A stretch of DNA of 19,069 bases, from the NCBI GenBank assembly GCA_043817485.1, contig JBDRGX010000084.1, forward strand, positions 1-19,069, written 5' to 3'. The notes beneath the pieces are model-generated. The model was not told the origin of the DNA. It made no database searches and worked only from the letters and a program-made list of their open reading frames with translations. Positions 2 to 15,749 of the stretch are shown here, piece after piece. The position numbers and the translations under genes are program-made. Position 1 is the first letter of the stretch. Each line of letters begins with the position of its first letter. This DNA comes from JBDRGX01 sp043817485 [NCBI: bacterium] (lineage in GTDB: Bacteria > JBDRGX01).

Positions 2-2068
2 TATGTTCAGAGACGCAAAGAAGATGATAAAGAAAAATCAAAGCGTAAATCGCAAGGAATTTATTACACACCAAAATACATTGTTGAATTTATTGTCAAG
101 GAAACTTTAGGTGAGGTTTTGAAAAAAACAAAGCCAAAAGAAATTTCTAAAATTAAAATACTTGACCCTGCTTGCGGTTCCGGGTCATTTTTAATTGCTG
201 CATATGATAAAATTTTGGAAACTTTAACAAAACAAAATTCACAAACTTCGCTTTTTACTAAATTCGATATTCTCAAAGATAATATTTATGGTGTAGATTT
301 AGATGTTCAAGCAATTGAAATTGCTCAATTAAATCTTTTGCTCAAAGTTTTATCGCAAAAAACAAAACTACCAATACTTCAACATAATATCAGTTCTGGA
401 AATTCGCTTGTATCTGGTAATGCTGAAAAATTGGAAAAATATTTTGGCGAAAAATGGAAAGAACAAAAACCATTTAATTTTGAAACTGAATTCAAAGAAG
501 TTTTTGAAACAAAACTATCAAAATTTCATCATCTTATTTTTGAGACAAAATATTCGCGACAAAAAAGCAAAGATAAAAATAATACGGTAGTAATTTTAGA
601 AGATATGGACAGATATTTGTTAGCAGAGTGTATTTTTAAATCAGTAAAAAAACTCGGTATTAAACTTTTTGCTGGAACAATTCTTCCTGATCATGTACAT
701 TTGGTTATTGCAGATATGGGGGAAAATATAGAGGAAATAGTTAATCAAATCAAAGGGTATGGTGCTTTTGTGGTAAACCGAACCCTTAAGGATTCGGTTG
801 AAGGAGAAGGACGACAACAACATCTTTGGGCAAAAGGTTGTAGCGATACTTTTCTTGATGATGAAAAACATCTTTTTGAAGCGATTGAATATGTAACAAA
901 TAATCATCTTAAACATGAGGATACATGGGGAAAAATTGATAATGTTAAAATTCAAAAAAGTTTAGCACCATTTTTGTATGATATAAATAAATTTCAATGG
1001 TCAGATTTTGAATATAGCAAAGGTGGTTTTGATGTCATTATTGGCAATCCACCGTATGTGAACATGCAGTTATTGGAAAGAGATGAGATTGGTTTTTATA
1101 AAGATAATTTTGTTGTTGCAAAGCAATATTTTAATTTATTTGCTTTATTTATTGAAAAATCTTTAAGACTCTTGAGAAATGACGGGTACTTTGGTTTTAT
1201 TGTGCCGAGCTTGTTCTTGAAAGGAATGCAATACGAACCTCTAAGAAAGTTGATAAATGCTACTGCTTCAGAGTTTTACATAAATGAACTAGGAGACAAT
1301 GTCTTTGAGAATGTAAAAATGCCTACCTGTATCTTTGTCATTAAAAAGGGTGTAAATAAAAAGAAGATAAATTACTTTGCACAACAAGGCATCAATATTT
1401 TTTCGGCTGACAAGACAGTAAGTTTAGGAAGCATAACAGATATTACAAGGGGTTTAGAAATTGGGAGAGACAAATTAAGTAATGCTGATGCAATTGTATG
1501 TATAACTGGAAGCAATATTGAGCCATATAGCATAAAGAGCAAGAGGTATATTTCAAGGGATACACTGAAGGAGTTTAATAAATCATCAGAAATCTTTGCT
1601 GTTCCTAAAATCTTGGTAAGAGAAACAGGAAATGCCATTGTGGCTACTTATGATGATAAAGGTATTATTACGACACGAAGTTTATACAATGTAAGGATAA
1701 AGGACAAAAGCTATTCACTGCTTTATATTTTGGCTCTCTTGAATTCAAAACCATATAAATATTATTTCAAAAGTTTCATTGTCCCAGATACAAATATTTT
1801 CCCAAAAATCAGGGTTGAGCAAACAAGACGGATACCAATTTATAAAATAGATTTTTCCAACCCCGCTGAAAAGACAAAACACGATGGACTCGTCTCCATT
1901 GCCGATAAAATGCTCAACCTCCATAAAGAACTTCGGAAGACATCAGAAAATACTGATAGATGGTATGTATTAAAATCTGAAATTGAAAAACTTGATAGCG
2001 AAATTGATGAGGAGATTTATAAACTCTATGGACTTACAACAGAAGAAATTAAAACAATTGAAACTTAA
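2..2068 (+). CDS. Type IIG-like restriction-modification enzyme (Eco57I/TaqI-like methylase plus specificity domain), 5'-truncated, with an embedded HUH domain
   Basis: The reading frame is open from the window edge, so the N-terminus (often a nuclease domain in this family) is outside. Before the first ATG-like start it reads GIYYTPKYIVEFIV (nt 56-97), the usual lead-in to an Eco57I-type N6-adenine methylase. Motif I DPACGSGSFL begins at nt 164 and the SAM-site acidic stretch GVDLD follows near nt 290. The catalytic NPPY is at nt 1046-1057. A TaqI-like C-terminal target-recognition region (GLEIGRDKLSN, then VPKILVRETG and ALLNSKPYKYYF) runs to about nt 1850, and the end is a helical DEEIYKLYGLTTEEI tail. 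Between motif I and NPPY sits about 150 extra residues resembling an IS200/REP-type transposase (separate entry). Composition is clearly less AT-rich than the genes that follow (24 of 60 bases are G/C at 1021-1080 against 12 of 60 at 3361-3420), which suggests horizontal acquisition. The methylase assignment is firm. Whether it also cuts DNA cannot be judged here. Confidence 0.88.
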   Translation, partial: YVQRRKEDDKEKSKRKSQGIYYTPKYIVEFIVKETLGEVLKKTKPKEISKIKILDPACGSGSFLIAAYDKILETLTKQNSQTSLFTKFDILKDNIYGVDLDVQAIEIAQLNLLLKVLSQKTKLPILQHNISSGNSLVSGNAEKLEKYFGEKWKEQKPFNFETEFKEVFETKLSKFHHLIFETKYSRQKSKDKNNTVVILEDMDRYLLAECIFKSVKKLGIKLFAGTILPDHVHLVIADMGENIEEIVNQIKGYGAFVVNRTLKDSVEGEGRQQHLWAKGCSDTFLDDEKHLFEAIEYVTNNHLKHEDTWGKIDNVKIQKSLAPFLYDINKFQWSDFEYSKGGFDVIIGNPPYVNMQLLERDEIGFYKDNFVVAKQYFNLFALFIEKSLRLLRNDGYFGFIVPSLFLKGMQYEPLRKLINATASEFYINELGDNVFENVKMPTCIFVIKKGVNKKKINYFAQQGINIFSADKTVSLGSITDITRGLEIGRDKLSNADAIVCITGSNIEPYSIKSKRYISRDTLKEFNKSSEIFAVPKILVRETGNAIVATYDDKGIITTRSLYNVRIKDKSYSLLYILALLNSKPYKYYFKSFIVPDTNIFPKIRVEQTRRIPIYKIDFSNPAEKTKHDGLVSIADKMLNLHKELRKTSENTDRWYVLKSEIEKLDSEIDEEIYKLYGLTTEEIKTIET
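515..955 (+). other. HUH/Y1 transposase-like (IS200/REP-associated) domain inserted in frame in the methylase
   Basis: The segment opens with KFHHLIFETKYSR (from nt 521), matching the first strand of IS200-type TnpA proteins. It continues through a helix to LPDHVHLVIA, whose HVH (His codons at nt 692 and 698) is the metal-binding HUH motif. IEEIVNQIKGYGAFVVNR follows, then LWAKGCSDTFLDDEKHLFEA. The motif IEYVTNN places the expected catalytic tyrosine at nt 890-892. This order matches REP-associated tyrosine transposases, and all catalytic residues appear to be kept. It lies between FNFETEFKEVF (ends near nt 510) and GGFDVIIGNPPY (from about nt 1025). In ordinary relatives these two methylase stretches are, from family knowledge, only a short linker apart. 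There is no stop or frame change at either border. A diverged, non-transposase DNA-binding role is possible. Confidence 0.78.
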
Positions 2069-2099
2069 ATTATAAGTAAAACATTGACATTAATCAATC

Positions 2100-2133
2100 T
2101 AAAATAGACTTATTGAGAAACAAGTCTATTTTA
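2100..2133 (+). terminator. Hairpin downstream of the restriction-modification gene, possible terminator
   Basis: A perfect 12-bp inverted repeat (TAAAATAGACTT pairing with AAGTCTATTTTA) with a 10-base loop starts 32 bases after the stop codon at 2068. The only U-run is the stem end itself, so it could terminate in either direction but is not a strong intrinsic terminator. The rest of 2069-2261 shows nothing coding. Confidence 0.5.
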
Positions 2134-2183
2134 AATTGAGAATATTAGATTCTTTTAATCCAAAATCTGAAATTTTATATTAT

Positions 2184-2211
2184 TTTACTTTTGATTGTAA
2201 ATTGGTATTAT
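2184..2211 (+). promoter_or_regulatory. Possible extended -10 promoter for the polysaccharide cluster
   Basis: TATTAT at 2206-2211 is preceded by TGG at 2203-2205, which fits the extended -10 (TGn) pattern. A weak -35 (TTTACT, 2184-2189) lies 16 bases upstream. It sits about 50 bases before the flippase start. In DNA this AT-rich such matches occur by chance, so confidence is modest. Confidence 0.35.
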
Positions 2212-2261
2212 AGCAAATTACAAATTTTTTTTGCATAATTTAATAAAAAAGGAATTTTAGA

Positions 2262-3731
2262 GTGGAATCTTCTAAATCTATATCTTCTTTATCAATAAAA
2301 AATAGTTTTTGGAATTTATTTGGATATTTTATAAGAAAAATTGTTGGAACAATATCTTTTATTATCTTGGCTCGAATATTATTTAAATCTGATTTTGGAC
2401 TTATTAGTGCAGTTCGGGTATTTTTAGATGCAGTTTTAATAGTTAGAGATATGGGTTTTTCTGCTTTTTTAATTTATCAAAAAAATGACACAAAAAATAC
2501 TGCTAATTTAATATTTTTTTTTAATATTTTTTCTGCTTTTTTGCTTTATTTTATACTTTTTTTTTCTGCACCATTAATTGCTAATTTTTATAAAGAAGAA
2601 ATTGTATCATCTATTATAAGAACATTGGGATTACTTTTACTTATTGAATCTTTTAGCTTAACTCATCTTACTCTTTTAACAAAAGAACTTCAATTTAAAA
2701 AAAAATCTATAGCAGAAATAATTTCTACTTCTATAACTTTTATTATATCTATTATTCTTGCTTTTAAACATTATGGAATTTGGAGTTTAATTTATGGAAA
2801 TCTTGTTGGATCTTTAGTAAATAGTTTTATTGTTTATTTTCTTTATTCATTTAAGCCAGTTTGGAAATTAGATTTTAAATTGCTTAAAGATATTTTTAAA
2901 TATGGTTCGTTTGTGACGGGCTCTAATCTTATTAATTTTTTTAGTTTTAATATGGCTTATTTAATTATAGGTAGATTTTTAGGAATGGAAGTTTTAGCTA
3001 TTTTTACAATGGCTTATAACTTGGCTAATTGGACATCTGAACATTTTATTTACATTATTTCTCGTGTTGCTTTTCCAGTTTTTTCTTTAATTCAAGATAA
3101 TAAAGTAGCTTTGAAAAAAGGGTATTTGAAAATAATACAATATACTTTTATTTTTGTATTTCCAGCTATTATTGGATTATTTTTTTTAAGCAAGGAATTT
3201 GTTTTAACTGTTTATACTGCAAAATGGATAGAAGTAATTGTTGTTTTAAAAATTCTTCTTTTTTGGAGTTTATTCCATTCTATTTTTATTTTACTTGATT
3301 CTATTTTACAATCTATTGGTTATCCTTCAGTTTCTTTTAAAATTAATTTAATGAAAATAATATTTTCTATTCCTATTTATATTTTTATTATTCCTTATGG
3401 AATTATTGCTTTTACCATTGCTATTACTATTATTCAATTTTTATTTAATTTTGTTCTGGCTTTTAAAACATATAAAATAATAGAACTTCAGTTTATAGAA
3501 ATAATAAAAATTATTAAAACACCTTTCATCTCTGGAATTTTGATGATTGGAACTATTTTTATTTCTCGATTTATTTTATCATTTATTAAAATGCCACAAT
3601 TAATTAATTTAATTATTCTTACTATTGCTAATGGCTTTTTATATTTTTTATTTTTTTATAAATTAGATTTCAATTTACTAAAAGAATTAAAAAAAATAGG
3701 GCAAAATGTATTTTCTTTTAAAAAAGTGTAA
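2262..3731 (+). CDS. Polysaccharide/oligosaccharide flippase (Wzx-like, MATE/MOP superfamily)
   Basis: A 489-residue, highly hydrophobic protein with about a dozen predicted membrane helices spread over its whole length. The N-terminus is short and polar, followed by NSFWNLFGYFIRKIVGTISF and ILARILFKSDFGLISAVRVF, the signature start of the polysaccharide biosynthesis export family (Wzx/TuaB type). Proteins of this family flip lipid-linked glycan intermediates across the cytoplasmic membrane. GTG at 2262 is chosen as start because AAAAAAGGA (to 2253) precedes it by 8 bases. Only two bases separate its stop from the next start, so it is translationally linked to the GT2 gene at 3734. Codon use is extremely AT-rich. 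The exact glycan cannot be told from sequence. A lipid II flippase is less likely, because the neighbours are glycosyltransferases typical of surface polysaccharide clusters. Confidence 0.87.
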   Translation: MESSKSISSLSIKNSFWNLFGYFIRKIVGTISFIILARILFKSDFGLISAVRVFLDAVLIVRDMGFSAFLIYQKNDTKNTANLIFFFNIFSAFLLYFILFFSAPLIANFYKEEIVSSIIRTLGLLLLIESFSLTHLTLLTKELQFKKKSIAEIISTSITFIISIILAFKHYGIWSLIYGNLVGSLVNSFIVYFLYSFKPVWKLDFKLLKDIFKYGSFVTGSNLINFFSFNMAYLIIGRFLGMEVLAIFTMAYNLANWTSEHFIYIISRVAFPVFSLIQDNKVALKKGYLKIIQYTFIFVFPAIIGLFFLSKEFVLTVYTAKWIEVIVVLKILLFWSLFHSIFILLDSILQSIGYPSVSFKINLMKIIFSIPIYIFIIPYGIIAFTIAITIIQFLFNFVLAFKTYKIIELQFIEIIKIIKTPFISGILMIGTIFISRFILSFIKMPQLINLIILTIANGFLYFLFFYKLDFNLLKELKKIGQNVFSFKKV

Positions 3732-7045: not shown

Positions 7046-10000
7046 ATGTTTAAACAAAGAAAAAATTATGGAAAATTTGTTAATGCAATTGAAATCCCTA
7101 ATTTGTTAGAAATGCAAAAAAAGTCTTATGAAGAATTTTTACAATTGAATGCTTTGCCAGAAAATCGTGAAGACAAAGGATTACAAAGACTTTTTAAAAC
7201 TATATTTCCAATAGAAGATTATAGTGGTAATTCAATTTTAGAATTTGTTAGTTATTCATTATCTGAACCACTTTATTCTGTTAAAGAATGTCAAATAAAA
7301 GATAAAACTTATTCAGTTCCTTTAAAAGTAAAATTAAGATTAATTATTAAAGAACAAATTTTAGAAACAAAAGAAAAAAAAATAAGAGATATAAAAGAAC
7401 AAGAAATTCATTTTGCATCAATTCCTTTAATGACAGAAAATAGTACTTTTATTATAAATGGAATAGAAAGAGTTATAGTTAATCAATTACATCGTTCTCC
7501 TGGTCTACTTTTTGAAGAAAATAAAAAATCTACAGTTAAAGGTCATTCATATAAAGCTCGAGTTATTCCTTTTAGAGGATCTTGGCTTGAATTTGAAATT
7601 GGAAATCTTGTTTATGTTAGAATTGATCGCAAAAGAAAAATGAATGCTACTATTTTACTTCGGGCATTAGGTTTATATGATTCTGATATTCTTGGCTTTT
7701 TTTATGATGTAGAAACTATTGATTTAACAAAGAATTCTTCAAGTAAATGGCTTGCTCTTTTAGAAAAAAGAATTTGTGCAGAAGATGTAATAGATAAAAA
7801 AATTGGTGAAATAATAATTGAAGCCAAAGAAGAAATTTCTTCAGAAAAAATAGAACTTTTAAAGAAATTTAATCCAGATTATATTAAAGTTTTGCCTTTA
7901 AATTATGATAATACTATTTTAATAACTTTGAAAAAAGATCTGTCTAAAACTCCAAGAGAATCTTTATTAGAAATTTATTCTAAACTTCGTTCTGGAAATC
8001 CTTTAATTCTTGAAAAAGCAAAAGTTTTTTTTGACAGATTATTTTTTTCTTTTACTACTTATGATTTAGGTAAGGTTGGTAGATTTAAAATAAATAAAAG
8101 ATTGGGATTAAATCTTTCTTTAGAAGAAAATCTTCTTACAAAAGAAGATATTGTTTTTGTTTTGAAATATTTAATTGGATTAAAAAATGGGCAAGGATTT
8201 ATTGATGATATTGATCATTTAGGAAATAGAAGAATACGATTAGTAGGAGAAGTAATCGAAGATAGATTAAGAAATGGTTTTGTTAGAATGCGTAGAGAAA
8301 TTAAAGAAAGAATGACTCTTCAAGAAATAGAAACTGTAATGCCAAATGTTTTGGTAAATGTCAATTCTTTAATGGCTACGATTAATAAATTTTTTAGATC
8401 TAGTGAACTTTCTCAATTTATGGATCAAGTTAATCCATTAGCTGAACTTACTCATAAACGAAGAATTAGTGCTTTAGGTATTGGGGGTATTACAAGAGAG
8501 CGTGCAGGTTTTGAAGTTAGAGATGTACATTATACTCATTATGGAAGAATTTGTCCTATTGAAACTCCAGAAGGATTAAATATAGGATTAATTACTTCAT
8601 TTACTATTTATTCCAAAGTAAATGAGTTGGGTTTCATAGAAACTCCTTATTTTAGCGTAAAAAATGGAAAAGTTGATAAAACAAAAATGCATTATCTTTC
8701 TGCAATAGAAGAAGATGATTTTATTGTTGCTTCTTCTGATGCAAAAGTTAATAAAGATGATGTAATAGAAAATGAATTTGTTTTAACTCGTAATAAAGGA
8801 AATTTTTTATTAGTAAAAAAAGAGGAAGTAAATTATATTGATGTTTCTTCAATGCAACTTATAAGTTTGTCTACTTCTTTAATTCCGTTTTTGGAACATG
8901 ATGATGCTAATAGAGCTTTAATGGGATCAAATATGCAAAGACAAGCAGTTCCACTTTTAAAAACAGAATCTCCTATAATTGGTACTGGAATGGAAAAAAT
9001 TGCAGCAAAAGAATCTGGTGTAATGCAAATTGCAGAAAGAGATGGAAAAGTAGTAAGAGTTTCAGGAAATGCTATTATTGTAAAAGGGATGACTAATTCT
9101 GGAAAAATATATTTTGATACTTATTGTCTACGAAAATATGAAAAATCAAATAATGACACTTGTATTAACCAAATTCCAATAGTTAAAACAGGCGATGAAG
9201 TTAAAAAAGGGGATATTTTGGCAGATGGTCAAAGTACAAGTTTAGGAGAATTAGCTTTGGGCCAAAATGTAATAGTAGCTTTTATGCCATGGAATGGTTA
9301 TAATTTTGAAGATGCAATTGTAATAAATGAAGATGTTGTTAGAAAGGAAAAATTTACCTCTATTCATATTAAAGAATTTGAAGTTGAAGCACAAATAACA
9401 AAATTAGGTAAAGAAGAAATTACACGAGATATTCCAAATGCAAGTGAAGAATCTTTGAAAAATTTAGACAAAGATGGAATTATAAAAATAGGAACTTATG
9501 TAGAACCAGGAGATATTTTAGTAGGAAAAATTACTCCTCGTGGACAAACAGAATTTACTCCAGAAGAAAAACTTTTAAGAGTAATTTTTAAAGATAAAGC
9601 TGGAGATGTAAAAGATGCTTCTTTGAAAGTTTCTGCTGGTATTTATGGACAGGTTATAGATGTAAAAGTGTTTTGTGCAAAAAGAAAAAATAAGGATATA
9701 AAAAAAATAGAAAAAGAAATAGAAGAAAAAGAAGCTTTATTAAAAGAAAAAATAAATTGGATAAAAAAAGAATATAAAGAAGAATTAGAAAAACTTATTT
9801 TAAATCAAAAAATTTTATCTAATTTAATTTATAAAGATAATGTAATTATTCAAAAAAATAGTTTTATTACAAAAGAAAATATAGAACTAATTATAAAACA
9901 TAAAAAAATATCAGAATTAAATTTAGAGGATTCTAAAATATCAAAAAAACTTTTAAATTTAACTACATCTGTAGAAGAATTAATTGAACAAGAAAAAATA

Positions 10001-13000
10001 AGTTCAAAAAAAGAACAAGAAAAAATGAAAAAAGGAGATGAATTATTATCTGGTGTAGATAAAAAAGTAAAAGTTTTTATTGCACAAAAAAAACGAATGG
10101 TAGTTGGAGATAAAATATCTGGTCGTCATGGAAATAAAGGAGTAATTGGAAAAATTGCACCAAGAGAAGAAATGCCATATATGTTAGATGGTAGACCTGT
10201 TGATATTATTTTAAATCCTTTAGGTGTGCCTTCAAGATTAAATATTGGGCAAATATTAGAAGCACATTTTGGTTGGGTTGCAGCTGCTTTGGGTTTTAAT
10301 GTAGAAACACCAGTATTTATAGGTGCTACTTCAGAAGAAGTAATGAATACCCTTAAAGAAGTTTCTGAAAAAGAAAGAAAAGAAAAAGGGAAAAATATGC
10401 TATATACAGAAAATGGCAAAATTACTCTTTTTGATGGAAGAACTGGAGAACCTTTTGAACAACAAATTACAGTTGGTTATATGTATATGATGAAGTTATT
10501 CCATTTGGCTGATGATAAAATTCATGCAAGATCTTCAGGTCCTTATTCTTTAGTTACTCAACAACCATTAGGAGGAAAAGTTCAATTTGGAGGACAACGG
10601 CTTGGAGAAATGGAAGTATGGGCATTAGAAGCATATGGAGCAGCTCATATTTTACAAGAAATGTTAACTGTAAAATCAGATGATATTGAAGGTAGAATGA
10701 AAACTTATGAAGCTATTGTTAAAGGACAGAATATTCCATTTACAGGGATTCCAGAATCTTTTAATGTTTTAATTAAAGAATTACAAGGGCTTTGCTTAGA
10801 TATTGAATTTAAAAATGATGAAAAAAATAAAAAAGATTTGAAAAATGATGAAAAAACATTTTCTTCTCTTCAAATAAGATTATGTTCTCCAGAAAAAATA
10901 CTTTCTTGGTCTTCTGGGGAAATAAAAAAATCTGAAACAATTAATTATAGAACCTATAAAACAGAAAGAGAAGGTTTGTTTTGTGAAAAAATATTTGGAC
11001 CTGTTAAAGATTGGGAATGTTATTGTGGTAAATATAAAGGAATAAAATATAAAGGAGTTATTTGTGATCGTTGTGGAGTAGAATTAACAAGATCAAATGT
11101 TAGAAGACAAAAAATGGGACATATTAAATTAGCTGCACCAGTAATTCATTCATGGTTTTTAAAAATCAATCCAAGCCCAATAGCTAAATTACTTGATTTT
11201 AAAGTAAGTGTATTGAAAAATATTTTGTATTTTGGAAATTATATTGTTACAAATATTGTGTCAAGTAAACAAGAAAGTATACTATTAGAAGTTAAAAAAT
11301 CTTATACAAAAGAATTAAAAAAAATAAATGAAGAAGTAGAAGAAAAAATAATTAAGTTAGAAAAAAGTTCAATTGTTGCTTTTCCAGTAAAAGATGAACA
11401 AGAAAATCAATGTTTAGATAAAGGAAAAACATTAAATTTAGAAATATTGTATGATTTGCAAAAAAAAGGAATTGAACAAATAAAAATCTATTTATTAAAA
11501 GAAGTGTTATTAAAAGAAAAAGAAGATTTTTTTGAAGAAGAAATTACAATTCAAAAAACATTAGTAGAAAAAAGTGTAGAAGAATTAATAAAAGAGTTTA
11601 CTGCTGAAAAAGAAATTTTTGAACAAGAAAGAGAAAAAAATAAAAAAGAATGTAGTTTAAGATATGAAAAAATTATTCATTTAATAAAATCTTTAAAACA
11701 AGAAGATATTTTAAATGAGGAACAATATAATTTACTTTCTGATCATATTCAGGGCTTTGCTGTAATTAATTCAGGACCATTAGCAATTCAACAAATGTTG
11801 CAAAAAATAGATGTGGAAAAATTAAGTAAAGAAACAAAAGCAAAAATAAAAACAACTAAATCTGTTTTAGAAAAAAAAGAATTACTTAAAAAAGTGAAAA
11901 TAGTAGAATCTTTTAGAACTTCTGGAAATAAACCAGAATGGCTGGTAATGACTATTTTGCCAGTTATTCCTCCAGATTTACGACCATTAGTTCATTTAGA
12001 AGGCGGTAAATTTGCTTCTTCTGATTTGAATGATTTATATAGAAGAATTATAAATAGAAACAATAGATTGAGCAGGTTAATGGAAATAAATGCTCCAGAA
12101 ATAATACTGAGAAATGAAAAGAGAATGTTGCAAGAAGCTGTTGATGCTTTAATAGATAATGAAAAATGTGCTAAACCAGTATTAAGTGGTGGTGCAAGAC
12201 CATTAAAATCTCTTAGTGAATTAATTAGAGGAAAACAAGGTAGATTTAGACAAAATCTTTTAGGAAAAAGAGTAGATTATTCTGGTAGAGCTGTAATTGT
12301 AGTAGGCCCAGAATTAAAAATGCATCAATGTGGTTTGCCTAAAAAAATGGCAGTAGAATTATTCAAACCATTTATTTTAAATAAATTAGAAGAAAAAGGT
12401 TATGCACAAACAGCAAAAAGTGCTAAAAGAGCAGTGCAAAAAATACGACCAGAAGTATGGGAAGTTTTGGAAGAAATTGTACATTCGCATACTATTTTGT
12501 TAAATAGAGCTCCTACTCTTCATAGATTAAGTATTCAAGCATTTGAACCAGTGCTTATAGAAGGAAATGCTATTTCTATTAATCCATTAGTTTGTTCTTC
12601 TTTTAATGCAGATTTTGATGGTGATGCAATGGCAGTTCATCTTCCACTTTCTCCAGAAGCTCAATCTGAAAGTATGCTTTTAATGCTTTCTGTTAATAAT
12701 ATTTTATCTTCAGCAAATGGAAAATCAGTATTTACTCCTACTCAAGAGATGGTATTAGGATGTTATTATTTAACTAAATCTAAAAAAGAAGATAAAAAAG
12801 AAAAGAAAATGTTTTCTAATATAGATGAAGTAATATTATCTTTAGATCGAAAAATGATAAATTTACATTCTTTTATAAAAATGAAATTAAATAATGAAAT
12901 AATTGAAACAACTCCTGGTAGAGTTATTTTTAATTCTATTTTTGAATCTGATTTAGATTTTGTTAATAAAGAAGTGGATAAAAATGGACTTTCTAAAATA

Positions 13001-15280
13001 ATTATAGCATATCATAAAAAATTTGGTAATCATAAAACTGTTCAAATATTAGATAAAATTAAAGAAGTTGGATTTAAATATGCTACATTAGGAGGAATTA
13101 CTATTAGTCTTGAAGATGTAATAATTCCAGAAAAAAAAGAAAAAATAGTTCAAAAATCAAAAATAGAAGTAGAAAAAGTAACTGTTCAATATAAAAAAGG
13201 TTTAATTACTAATGGAGAAAGATATAATAAAGTAATAGATATTTGGGTAAATAGTACAGAAGAAGTAGCTAATGCAATGTTTGAGGAATTAGAAAAAGAT
13301 AAAGATGGGCTTAATCCTATTTATATTATGGCAGATTCTGGGGCTAGAGGAAATCGTCTTCAAGTAAGACAATTAGCTGGAATGAGAGGATTAATGGCAA
13401 AACCTTCTGGAGAAATCATAGAATCACCTATTATTTCCAATTTTAAAGAAGGACTAACAGTTTTGGAATATTTTATTTCTACCCATGGAGCAAGAAAAGG
13501 ATTGGCTGATACAGCTGTTAAAACTGCAGATGCTGGATATTTAACCAGAAAATTAGTTGATGTAGCTCAAGATGTTACTATTACAGAAAGAGATTGTGGA
13601 ACTACTCGTGGTAGAGTAATTGAATTTGTTGAAGAAGGAAGAGAAGGAATAGAAAGTTTTTCAGAAAAAATAATTGGCCGTGTTACTTTAGATAATATTG
13701 TTGATCCAGTAACAGATGAAGTGATTATAAAGGTTGGGCAAGAAATTGTTGAAGAGATAATAAAAAAAATAGAAAACTTAGGTATAGAAAAAATAAAAGT
13801 TCGTTCAGTTTTGACATGTGAAGCAGAAAGAGGTGTTTGTCAATTATGTTATGGTAGAGATCTTTCAACTGGAAAAATAGTAGAAATAGGAGAAGCTGTT
13901 GGAATTATAGCAGCACAGTCTATTGGAGAACCGGGTACTCAGCTTACAATGAGAACATTCCATATAGGTGGTACTGCAAGTAGAACAGTAGAACAATCAA
14001 GAATAGAATCTAAAAATGATGGAATAGTAAAATATGTGAATATTAAAATGATTGTGAATAAAGAAGGTGAAATTATAGTTTTAACGAGAAATGGTTTAAT
14101 AAATATTTATGATGATCAAGGAAGAGAAAGAGAAACTTATCAAATTCCTATTGGTGCAATTTTAAAAGTAAAAGATGGGCAAAAAATTTCAAAACATGAA
14201 GTATTAGTACAATGGACACTTTATTTAACCCCTATATTAACAGATGTAAGTGGGAAAGTAGTTTTTAAAGATATTATTGAAGGGGTAACAATGAATGAAG
14301 AAATAGATGAAATTACAAGTTTTACTGCTCAAGTAATAATAGAACCAAAAATAGAAGCAAAAAGAAAATATGCTTTAAGACCACAAATTTTAGTTGAAGA
14401 TGATGAAGGAAATACTCTTGCAGTTTATGATGTACCAGTAGGATCTCATTTATTAATACAAAATAATGATAAAATATTTGCTGGAGATATATTAGCTAAA
14501 ATTCATAAAAAAATAGGAAAAACAAAAGATATTACTGGAGGACTTCCACGAGTTTCTGAATTATTTGAAGTAAGAAAATCATTAAATGCAGCTATAATAT
14601 CTGAAATAGATGGTGTTGTAAGTTTTGTTGAAACTTCAAAAGGAGAGCGAAAAATTGTAATAACAGGAGAAAATGATAGTATCTGTGAATATAAAATTTC
14701 TCATGGTAAACATGTAATTGTTCATAAAGGAGATAAAATTACAGATGGAGATTGTTTAGTAGATGGACCAATAGATCTTTATAGTATATTAAAAGTAAAG
14801 GGAGAAATGGCAGCTCAGGAATATTTAGTAAATGAAGTTCAGTCAATTTATAGATTACAAGGTGTAGAAATTAATGATAAACATATAGAAATAATTGTAA
14901 AGCAAATGTTGAAAAATGTAAAAATAGAATCATCTGGAGATACCAAATTTTTAGAAGAAATGATAGTAGATAAAAAAGAATTTAACAAAGAAAATGAAAA
15001 AGTAGTTAAAAAAGGTGGAAAACCAGCAGTTGGAAAATCTGTGCTTATGGGAATAACAAGAACTTCTTTAAATACTGATAGTTTTATTTCTGCAGCATCT
15101 TTCCAAGAAACAACTCGTATTTTGAGTAATGCAGCTATTAATGGTAAAGTAGATAAAATGAGAGGCTTAAAAGAAAATGTTATAATGGGACATTTAATAC
15201 CAACGGGAACTGGTTTATGGAAAACAATGGGTAATTATGAAACAGTTGAAGATGAAGAAATTGAAAAGGTTGAAAAATAA
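7046..15280 (+). CDS. rpoBC: Fused DNA-directed RNA polymerase beta-beta' subunit
   Basis: One continuous 2744-residue frame encodes both catalytic polymerase subunits. Residues 1-1255 are RpoB: the [17 protein letters not shown] start, the rifampicin-region block [18 protein letters not shown] (from 456), [20 protein letters not shown], a Lys/Glu-rich coiled-coil insert (about 885-1000), the [14 protein letters not shown] active-site block and a normal [17 protein letters not shown] end. A short charged linker follows (1256-1271). RpoC then runs to the end: zinc site CYC...CDRC (Cys1325, 1327, 1340, 1343), a long coiled-coil insert (about 1400-1560), catalytic NADFDGD (Asp1856, 1858, 1860), the trigger-loop region [21 protein letters not shown], the second zinc site ([10 protein letters not shown] plus [11 protein letters not shown]) and the conserved ATG-free C-terminus [14 protein letters not shown]. 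All catalytic residues are present, so it should be fully active. GGGAG (7031-7035) is the ribosome site, 10 bases before ATG. It is transcribed alone, without rplJ/rplL upstream. Confidence 0.98.
10811..10857 (+). other. Beta/beta' fusion linker
   Basis: The junction encodes roughly 16 charged residues in which KNDEK occurs twice. The underlying DNA AAAAATGATGAAAAAA is repeated at 10811-10826 and 10839-10854. There is no stop codon, internal start with a ribosome site, or frame change. The repeat suggests the linker grew by local duplication after the two frames joined. Confidence 0.8.
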
Positions 15281-15293
15281 GATATTGTTAAGA

Positions 15294-15329
15294 AAAAAAA
15301 ACGCAAGTTTTATAACTTGCGTTTTTTTT
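15294..15329 (+). terminator. Intrinsic terminator of rpoBC (bidirectional)
   Basis: ACGCAAGTT pairs perfectly with AACTTGCGT across a TTAT loop (15301-15322). An A-run precedes the stem and eight T follow it (15322-15329). It begins 13 bases after the rpoBC stop. The symmetrical A and T runs allow it to work from either side. Confidence 0.92.
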
Positions 15330-15712: not shown

Positions 15713-15749
15713 ATACACAAATGATATTTGTTGAATATCATTTGTGTAT
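15713..15749. repeat. Perfect 16-bp inverted repeat (hairpin)
   Basis: ATACACAAATGATATT pairs without mismatch with AATATCATTTGTGTAT across the five-base loop TGTTG. It starts 17 bases after the GAACGGCCGTTC palindrome. It has no T-run suited to a terminator. Function unknown; an operator-like site or a mobile-element remnant are options. Confidence 0.7.

What the first reader, a model, noticed from the sequence alone, without database searches (positions are those of the whole stretch)
515..955. HUH/Y1 transposase domain embedded in frame inside a restriction-modification methylase
A complete-looking IS200/REP-type domain (FHHLIFETKY, LPDHVHLVI, LWAKG...DTF, IEYVTNN) sits between methylase motif I and the NPPY catalytic loop. 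Both host halves are intact and the frame is continuous, and the HUH histidines and the Tyr are kept. HUH enzymes nick single-stranded DNA. One fused to a methylase/specificity module could give a modification enzyme with a nicking or hairpin-recognition activity, a target-guided transposase, or a domain co-opted for DNA binding. I do not know of this arrangement as a described system. It may recur in other genomes under generic annotation.
Basis: partly seen in the sequence, partly recalled or inferred. Interest (0 to 1): 0.8.

Follow-up and report, generated by a model that had tools for sequence, protein, structure and literature searches.

The report
Transposase domain inside a DNA-modifying enzyme
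A small single-strand-DNA transposase sits in frame inside a restriction-modification enzyme, and the same kind of transposase turns up in frame inside genes such as tRNA synthetases in other bacteria, which suggests a mobile element that can enter a gene without breaking its reading frame.

Summary
Window ~507-1019 is a ~171-codon in-frame insert with a Y1/HUH (REP/IS200-type) transposase domain: HVH (692-700), Tyr (890-892) and Y---N are intact. It lies in a type IIG-like methylase just before GGFDVIIGNPPYV; the closest homologue found (L002) lacks it.

The proposed nicking methylase is not supported. The same domain type lies in frame in a second methylase (G306, same site) and in AlaRS, ValRS, IleRS, LeuRS (3), MetH (2), IspG, HsdR and HsdS (11 proteins, all above Pfam's cut-off). 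Seven of seven gene-interior inserts of the Verrucomicrobiota sample carry palindromic repeats on both sides, like whole REPtrons/TIRtrons; three checked in the Patescibacteria sample do not. Fused domains are not one clade (0 of 200 bootstrap trees).

Best reading: a REP-type transposase element, open throughout, inserted in frame at a tolerant border; one case of recurrent in-frame insertion into genes. Against it: no terminal repeats here, only an internal palindrome (776-799), and a score below the RAYT cut-off. Activity is untested. In-frame REPs are published; in-frame whole transposases I did not find in nine searches of one library.

The parts
2..2068 (+). type IIG-like Eco57I/TaqI_C adenine methylase frame, cut by the left edge of the window, carrying the insert
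   Evidence: PADLOC best match REase_MTase_IIG 216 bits
164..184 (+). methylase motif I, DPACGSG
488..505 (+). last host residues before the insert, EFKEVF
   Evidence: alignment with L002
507..1019 (+). in-frame insert of about 171 codons holding the Y1/HUH transposase domain
   Evidence: DNA empty-site comparison with L002
524..916 (+). HUH domain core from FHHLIFETKY to NNHLKH
   Evidence: Pfam Y1_Tnp, coordinates
692..700 (+). HUH motif HVH (metal-binding histidines)
776..799 (+). 24-nt palindrome AACCGAACCCTTAAGGATTCGGTT in the loop between the HUH and Tyr halves
   Evidence: 0 of 100 shuffles as good; DNA fold z -2.55 (+) and -3.50 (-)
890..892 (+). putative catalytic Tyr (TAT), followed at +4 by Asn (YVTNN)
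1022..1060 (+). host resumes: GGFDVIIGNPPYV, methylase motif IV
1499..1840 (+). TaqI_C target-recognition domain
   Evidence: residues 500-613

Best explanation
The insert is a REP/IS200-type Y1 transposase (TnpA) element whose whole length reads as open frame in phase with the host. It landed in a type IIG-like methylase at the border between the conserved N-terminal module and the variable module that begins at motif IV. Shown: the insert, its in-frame state, its HUH/Tyr residues, the empty site in relatives, and the same kind of insertion in other genes. Inferred: it arrived by single-strand (HUH) transposition; because the element has no stop in this frame, the host enzyme is still made as one chain with an extra surface domain, and the transposase is expressed through the host gene's translation. 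The domain is probably a passenger that may still nick palindromic single-stranded DNA, rather than a working part of the methylase.
For: Empty site in the closest homologue found; no HUH match in the other methylase frames held apart from G306. A second HUH in a different Eco57I methylase at the same place before FDIVIGNPPY, with an empty-site relative. Eleven further proteins with Y1_Tnp in frame inside (10) or at the end of (HsdS) other genes, 11 of 11 above Pfam's cut-off. Where solved homologues have gaps of 6, 20, 26 and 12 residues, LeuRS L182, IleRS L180, ValRS L179 and AlaRS L172 have 175, 264, 255 and 216. Inverted or direct palindromic repeats on both sides of the transposase in 7 of 7 Verrucomicrobiota-sample inserts lying inside a gene. 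NCBIfam RAYT cut-off passed by 7 of the 10 fused domains given. REP palindromes at the same methylase site in L052 and L056. Tree: fused domains scattered among free-standing ones. HUH and Tyr kept in 13 of 13 fused domains, Asn at Tyr+4 in 12 of 13, L181 having His (read by eye).
Against: The window insert has no terminal repeats: DNA folds of its borders are no better than shuffles and no flanking repeat stands out. Nor do the three other inserts of the Patescibacteria sample that were checked, L180-L182; G306's flanks were scanned for hairpins only. So the repeat-bounded unit is shown only in the other phylum. The window domain misses the curated RAYT cut-off (43.4 of 80 bits), as do L179, L181 and L182. 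The window as a whole has 7 palindromes against a mean of 6.75 expected, so the internal palindrome is notable only by its place. Fused domains are less scattered in the tree than random labels (8 changes; 0 of 500 shuffles as low), so some fusions share ancestry or a lineage is prone to it. No expression or activity data. Transposition itself is not observed.
Confidence: 0.7

Rival explanations
1. Co-opted module: the HUH domain has become a working part of the restriction-modification enzyme, for example nicking or binding hairpin or single-stranded DNA of phages or plasmids.
For: Catalytic residues are kept in both methylases although the domains share only 28% identity. Both sit at the same place next to motif IV. 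Restriction-modification genes are 4 of the 13 hosts (window, G306, HsdR, HsdS).
Against: 9 of 13 hosts have nothing to do with restriction. The closest methylase homologue does without it. The clade of window and G306 domains also holds a gene with its own start (L183), though its 3' end is cut by the contig.
Confidence: 0.12
2. Passive insertion at a tolerant loop: the border before motif IV accepts many sequences, and the HUH domain came by illegitimate recombination, with no transposition and no function.
For: A different, unrelated ~150-aa insert sits there in L001, short REPs sit there in L052 and L056, and the border separates a conserved from a variable part in all three pairs compared (85-87% against 36-37%). 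The window insert and L180-L182 lack terminal repeats.
Against: Repeated choice of this one domain type across many host genes, with repeats on both sides in the other phylum.
Confidence: 0.15
3. Decayed or misassembled sequence: a dead element or chimeric contig.
For: No genome is held for the window. The thiC gene in the window is frame-shifted. G306's methylase frame has a TAG upstream.
Against: In 12 of 13 proteins, from 12 assemblies counting the window (HsdS, the 13th, has host sequence only before the domain), the two host parts flank the insert in frame; a chimera would not be expected to rejoin two parts of one gene. Long open frame with intact motifs.
Confidence: 0.03

Closest known systems
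TnpA-REP / RAYT with REPtrons and TIRtrons (PMC3733652: passages seen; PMC6006769: outline with abstract, sections 5 and 31, passages seen; PMC8266576: listing and two passages seen)
   Same: Y1/HUH domain, Tyr followed at +4 by Asn, association with palindromic repeats; 7 of 10 fused domains given pass NCBIfam's RAYT cut-off.
   Different: Here the transposase is read as part of another gene's product. [quoted passage not shown] The window domain itself is below the RAYT cut-off and has H where that paper gives P for class 2 (YVTNNH against Y---NP).
Rickettsia palindromic elements and intragenic REPs (PMC3733652: passages seen)
   Same: In-frame palindromic inserts in coding genes, tRNA synthetases included; Opitutus terrae and Rickettsia conorii named as richest.
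   Different: Those are short repeats (REPs 20-40 bp; dimers or groups encode 20-30 residues) without a gene; here the insert carries a transposase and spans about 170-260 residues.
Inteins and homing elements (recalled, no call)
   Same: In-frame insertion in conserved genes with host protein retained.
   Different: The Pfam scans list no intein family; the extra domain would stay in the protein (inference).
Type IIG restriction-modification enzymes, Eco57I/TaqI_C (Pfam, PADLOC)
   Same: The host: motif I, NPPY, TaqI_C.
   Different: The closest homologue found has no HUH domain.

Membership tests
Y1/HUH transposase superfamily (Pfam PF01797) | Profile match above gathering cut-off | tested here: met
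   36.7 bits against 23
Y1/HUH transposase superfamily (Pfam PF01797) | HUH pair, Tyr and the +4 Q/N metal ligand | tested here: met
   HVH 692-700, Tyr 890-892, Asn at +4; ligand role as described in PMC6006769 section 31
Y1/HUH transposase superfamily (Pfam PF01797) | HUH fold by structure prediction | tested here: inconclusive
   mean pLDDT 41 without alignment
REP-associated tyrosine transposase (RAYT, NF047646) | Curated score of 80 bits | tested here: not met
   window 43.4 bits; 7 of the 10 other fused domains given pass
REP-associated tyrosine transposase (RAYT, NF047646) | Flanked by REP or terminal inverted repeats | tested here: not met
   none at the window borders; present in 7 of 7 Verrucomicrobiota-sample interior inserts, absent in L180-L182
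REP-associated tyrosine transposase (RAYT, NF047646) | Cleaves and joins single-stranded palindromic DNA | not testable with these tools
   needs biochemistry
IS200/IS605 transposase (NF033573) | Curated score of 55 bits | tested here: not met
   30.6 bits
Type IIG restriction-modification enzyme | Motif I, NPPY and TaqI_C in one chain | tested here: met
Type IIG restriction-modification enzyme | N-terminal nuclease domain | tested here: inconclusive
   lies left of the window; relatives L001 and L002 extend about 320 residues further and L002 matches a REase_MTase_IIG profile nearly end to end; the nuclease motif itself was not tested

The most novel reading that the evidence does not exclude
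A class of single-strand transposons has become free of stop codons through terminal palindromes and transposase alike, so that it can enter essential genes in frame: the host enzyme survives as a domain-insertion protein and the transposase is translated as part of it, protected from loss because deleting it imprecisely would kill the gene. The window methylase is one such host.
Probability: 0.4. Interest if true: 0.88.

Novelty: new variant of a known kind. Interest (0 to 1): 0.7.

Why it matters
In-frame palindromes inside genes are known, but how they get there and whether their transposase can follow is open. Whole transposase units read through inside LeuRS, IleRS, ValRS, AlaRS and MetH would show that a mobile element can live inside essential genes without splicing. 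It would also explain a source of odd domain insertions that an earlier survey set aside as fusions or annotation errors.

Tried and rejected
Looked for relatives of the fusion in viral contigs, phages and plasmids: none. The plasmid methylases found with the full protein are all under 60% identical and none covers 80% of the query. seek exact short peptides, none of them in the HUH core, so they reach close relatives only. HUH plus NPPY together in 285 and 85 genomes: G306, methylase-only matches, and one HUH gene (L063, the same place as L183). Searches around L003's genome alone and in the 3-genome phylum of G002 gave nothing. Rejected a border at the window insert marked by repeats or hairpins. 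AlphaFold on the insert alone gave no usable model, so no fold search was run. The near 15-nt repeat 489-503/949-963 does not lie at the DNA-defined borders and is not in phase; not taken as a target duplication.

Twenty further loci, mostly mid-size frames, were fetched. All 20 gave a frame matching the HUH profile. By eye only, with no family search, one (L185) joins the front of a methylase-like protein to the HUH domain and then stops; the others look free-standing, several with repeat-coded tails, and some are cut by the locus end.

The first tree cut several tails wrongly and missed L183; one search replaces it. In one search the tandem HsdS-side copy (L176, 228-residue frame) counts as not fused. 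The GC3 figure for the insert was taken in the wrong frame; one search replaces it (insert 0.16, host front 0.17). No shuffle control was run for the terminal repeats. One search has a reversed-pattern control (0 matches) for three of them. Whether the host genes are the only copies in their genomes was not tested. One search scored at most 8 candidates in a genome, so its counts are lower bounds.

Papers: nine searches listed no account that I recognised of a whole transposase in frame inside housekeeping genes. I judged from listings, opening passages only three papers. The library lacks most subscription journals and all bioRxiv preprints.

Full report
THE OBSERVATION. The frame at 2-2068 (+) runs off the left edge of the window and encodes 688 residues. 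Pfam finds N6_Mtase and Eco57I methylase parts, a TaqI_C specificity domain, and within them Y1_Tnp (36.7 bits, cut-off 23). NCBIfam gives REP_Tyr_transpos at 43.4 bits, below its cut-off of 80, and IS200 at 30.6, below 55. PADLOC's best family is a type IIG restriction enzyme-methyltransferase. HVH is at 692-700, Tyr at 890-892 and an Asn at Tyr+4.

THE EMPTY SITE. One scan of genome contigs with the full protein gave three relatives. The closest, L002 (a MAG contig titled Clostridia bacterium), is 80% identical over residues 1-188 and goes straight from EFKEVF to GGFDVIIGNPPYV, one or two residues between. L001 (titled Patescibacteria group bacterium) has an unrelated ~150-aa insert at the same place, with no Pfam match above cut-off. 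Of 28 methylase frames with different NPPY surroundings listed, one has HUH (G306), one has the L001 insert and two have a short REP palindrome (L052, L056). The other 24 gave no match to the HUH profile; six of them have spacers of 191-302 residues between motif I and NPPY that I did not examine further. In all three pairs among window, L001 and L002 the part before the site is 85-87% identical (139/164, 145/168, 142/164) and the part after it 36-37% (114/321, 121/328, 129/363). The site is thus a border between a conserved and a variable module. The insert has the same third-position GC (0.16) as the host part before it (0.17).

A SECOND METHYLASE. In 379 genomes drawn from the phylum of L001's genome, a BLAST search with the domain found matches in 8 genomes, one of them in a long frame: G306. 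Its 1339-residue frame (in L044) is an Eco57I methylase with Y1_Tnp at 27.0 bits. The HUH domain is split by a repeat-rich linker and sits between WFDPEWMFGV and KGFDIVIGNPPYV, where G352 reads WFDPEWMFGVKSGFDIIIANPPYK. An in-frame TAG lies upstream of this frame, so that gene may be broken at its front. Searching HUH plus NPPY in 285 and 85 genomes, which overlap the earlier sample in part, found no other methylase fusion at E 1e-12.

THE SAME DOMAIN IN OTHER GENES. A three-sequence profile of the domain gave 67 rows in 46 of 387 genomes of the phylum of L003's genome (titled Verrucomicrobiales) and 33 rows in 22 of 379 genomes of the first phylum. I call these the Verrucomicrobiota and Patescibacteria samples after those titles; the genomes themselves are unnamed. 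Eight of the 67 rows, and five of the 33 (four proteins, G306 among them), lie in frames over 700 residues; a further long row, G223, matches only the methylase tail of the profile. I fetched all eleven new ones. They are AlaRS (L172), IspG/GcpE (L173), LeuRS (L174, L181, L182), MetH (L175, L177), HsdS with the domain at its C-terminus (L176), HsdR (L178), ValRS (L179) and IleRS (L180); Y1_Tnp passes the cut-off in 11 of 11. Against solved structures the extra residues are plain: 175 where 1h3n (LeuRS) has 6, 264 where 8c8v (IleRS) has 20, 255 where 1gax (ValRS) has 26, 216 where 4xem (AlaRS) has 12. The two MetH inserts share one site, and so, by eye, do LeuRS L181 and L182. Between the MetH inserts, differences per codon position are 0.34, 0.28 and 0.56 at 55% amino-acid identity, as expected under constraint on the protein.

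TERMINAL REPEATS. In all seven Verrucomicrobiota-sample inserts that lie inside a gene, palindromic repeats stand on both sides of the transposase: inverted arms of 42 nt (90%) in L172, 47 nt (85%) in L173, 29 nt (93%) in L174, 31 nt (87%) in L175, 28 nt (93%) in L177, repeated palindromes in L178, and a 64-nt repeat pair in direct order in L179. They lie within the open frame. L176 was not put through this test. In the Patescibacteria sample, L180, L181 and L182 show no such ends. Of three repeats sought in the fetched parts of their genomes, those of G925 and G1015 occur elsewhere too, that of G813 only at the ValRS insert; the reversed patterns gave no match. NCBIfam's RAYT cut-off is passed by 7 of the 10 fused domains given; L179, L181 and L182 fall short, and L176 and G306 were not given.

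THE WINDOW'S OWN MARKS. The window insert has no repeats at its ends. Inside it, in the loop between the HUH and Tyr halves, is a 24-nt palindrome at 776-799. Of 36 loops tested, five have a palindrome that none of 100 shuffles equals: window, G306, L180, L181 and the free-standing L037; four more have 2 or 3 of 100. Similar palindromes stand outside the transposase in the same genomes: once in G336 (L210), twice in G306 (L220). The whole window has 7 palindromes of the chosen kind against a mean of 6.75 expected, so the argument rests on place. Palindromes of REP type, 57 copies in G590 and 6 in G511 with none for the backward pattern, include the copies at the methylase site of L052 and L056. 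Of 35 distinct copies in the 30 loci read, four lie within frames of at least 150 residues, two of them these.

DESCENT. In a tree of 70 domains, the 12 fused rows need 8 changes, starred branches force at least 6, and none of 200 bootstrap trees has one origin; yet they are more clustered than shuffled labels (0 of 500 as low). The window groups with G306 and L183 (99/94), and G306 with L183 (100/91). L183 begins as its own gene after a frame that looks by eye like a U32-type peptidase, but its end is cut by the contig. The tree has few columns and some long branches, so single placements are unsure.

HOW IT LIKELY WORKS. Shown: in-frame inserts, intact motifs, empty sites, recurrence, repeats around the domain in one phylum. 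Inferred: HUH single-strand transposition carries a unit that is open in one frame; at surface loops or module borders the host enzyme tolerates it, and the transposase is made as part of the host chain. Whether the window domain still nicks DNA is unknown. A role in restriction is possible but has little support beyond its position and kept residues.

KNOWN AND NEW. PMC3733652 (passages) reports REPs in frame within genes, tRNA synthetases among them, and describes REPtrons and TIRtrons. PMC6006769 (sections 5 and 31) classes TnpA-Y1 proteins and says long fusion-like ones were discarded. Nine searches of this library listed no account that I recognised of whole transposases in frame inside housekeeping genes. 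I therefore call it a new variant of a known kind.

Noticed in passing
window 7046-15280 (+): rpoB and rpoC are fused in one 2744-residue frame (Pfam Rpb2 and Rpb1 domains in order).
   Followed up: partly
window about 16340 (+): thiC looks frame-shifted: its annotated frame starts at profile position 93 and the missing front reads, by eye, in another frame upstream.
   Followed up: partly
window 15294-15329 and 15713-15749: Two perfect 16-bp-arm palindromes after rpoBC; the first ends in a T run like a terminator. Rfam finds nothing at gathering scores in the window.
   Followed up: no
L001 (methylase frame 15-3134): A different ~150-aa insert, without a Pfam match above cut-off, at the same site before the NPPY motif.
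   Followed up: partly
L185 (G1038:C83): The front of what looks like another methylase runs into a HUH transposase and then stops (by eye).
   Followed up: no
L176 1773-4001 and 3907 onward: HsdS carries a HUH domain at its C-terminus, with a second, nearly identical copy in an overlapping frame downstream.
   Followed up: no
L224 8545 and 8584; L226 15594: The repeat that bounds the LeuRS insert of G925 recurs further along the same LeuRS frame and inside a 1178-residue frame.
   Followed up: no
L044 3893-3895: In-frame TAG upstream of the G306 methylase frame.
   Followed up: no
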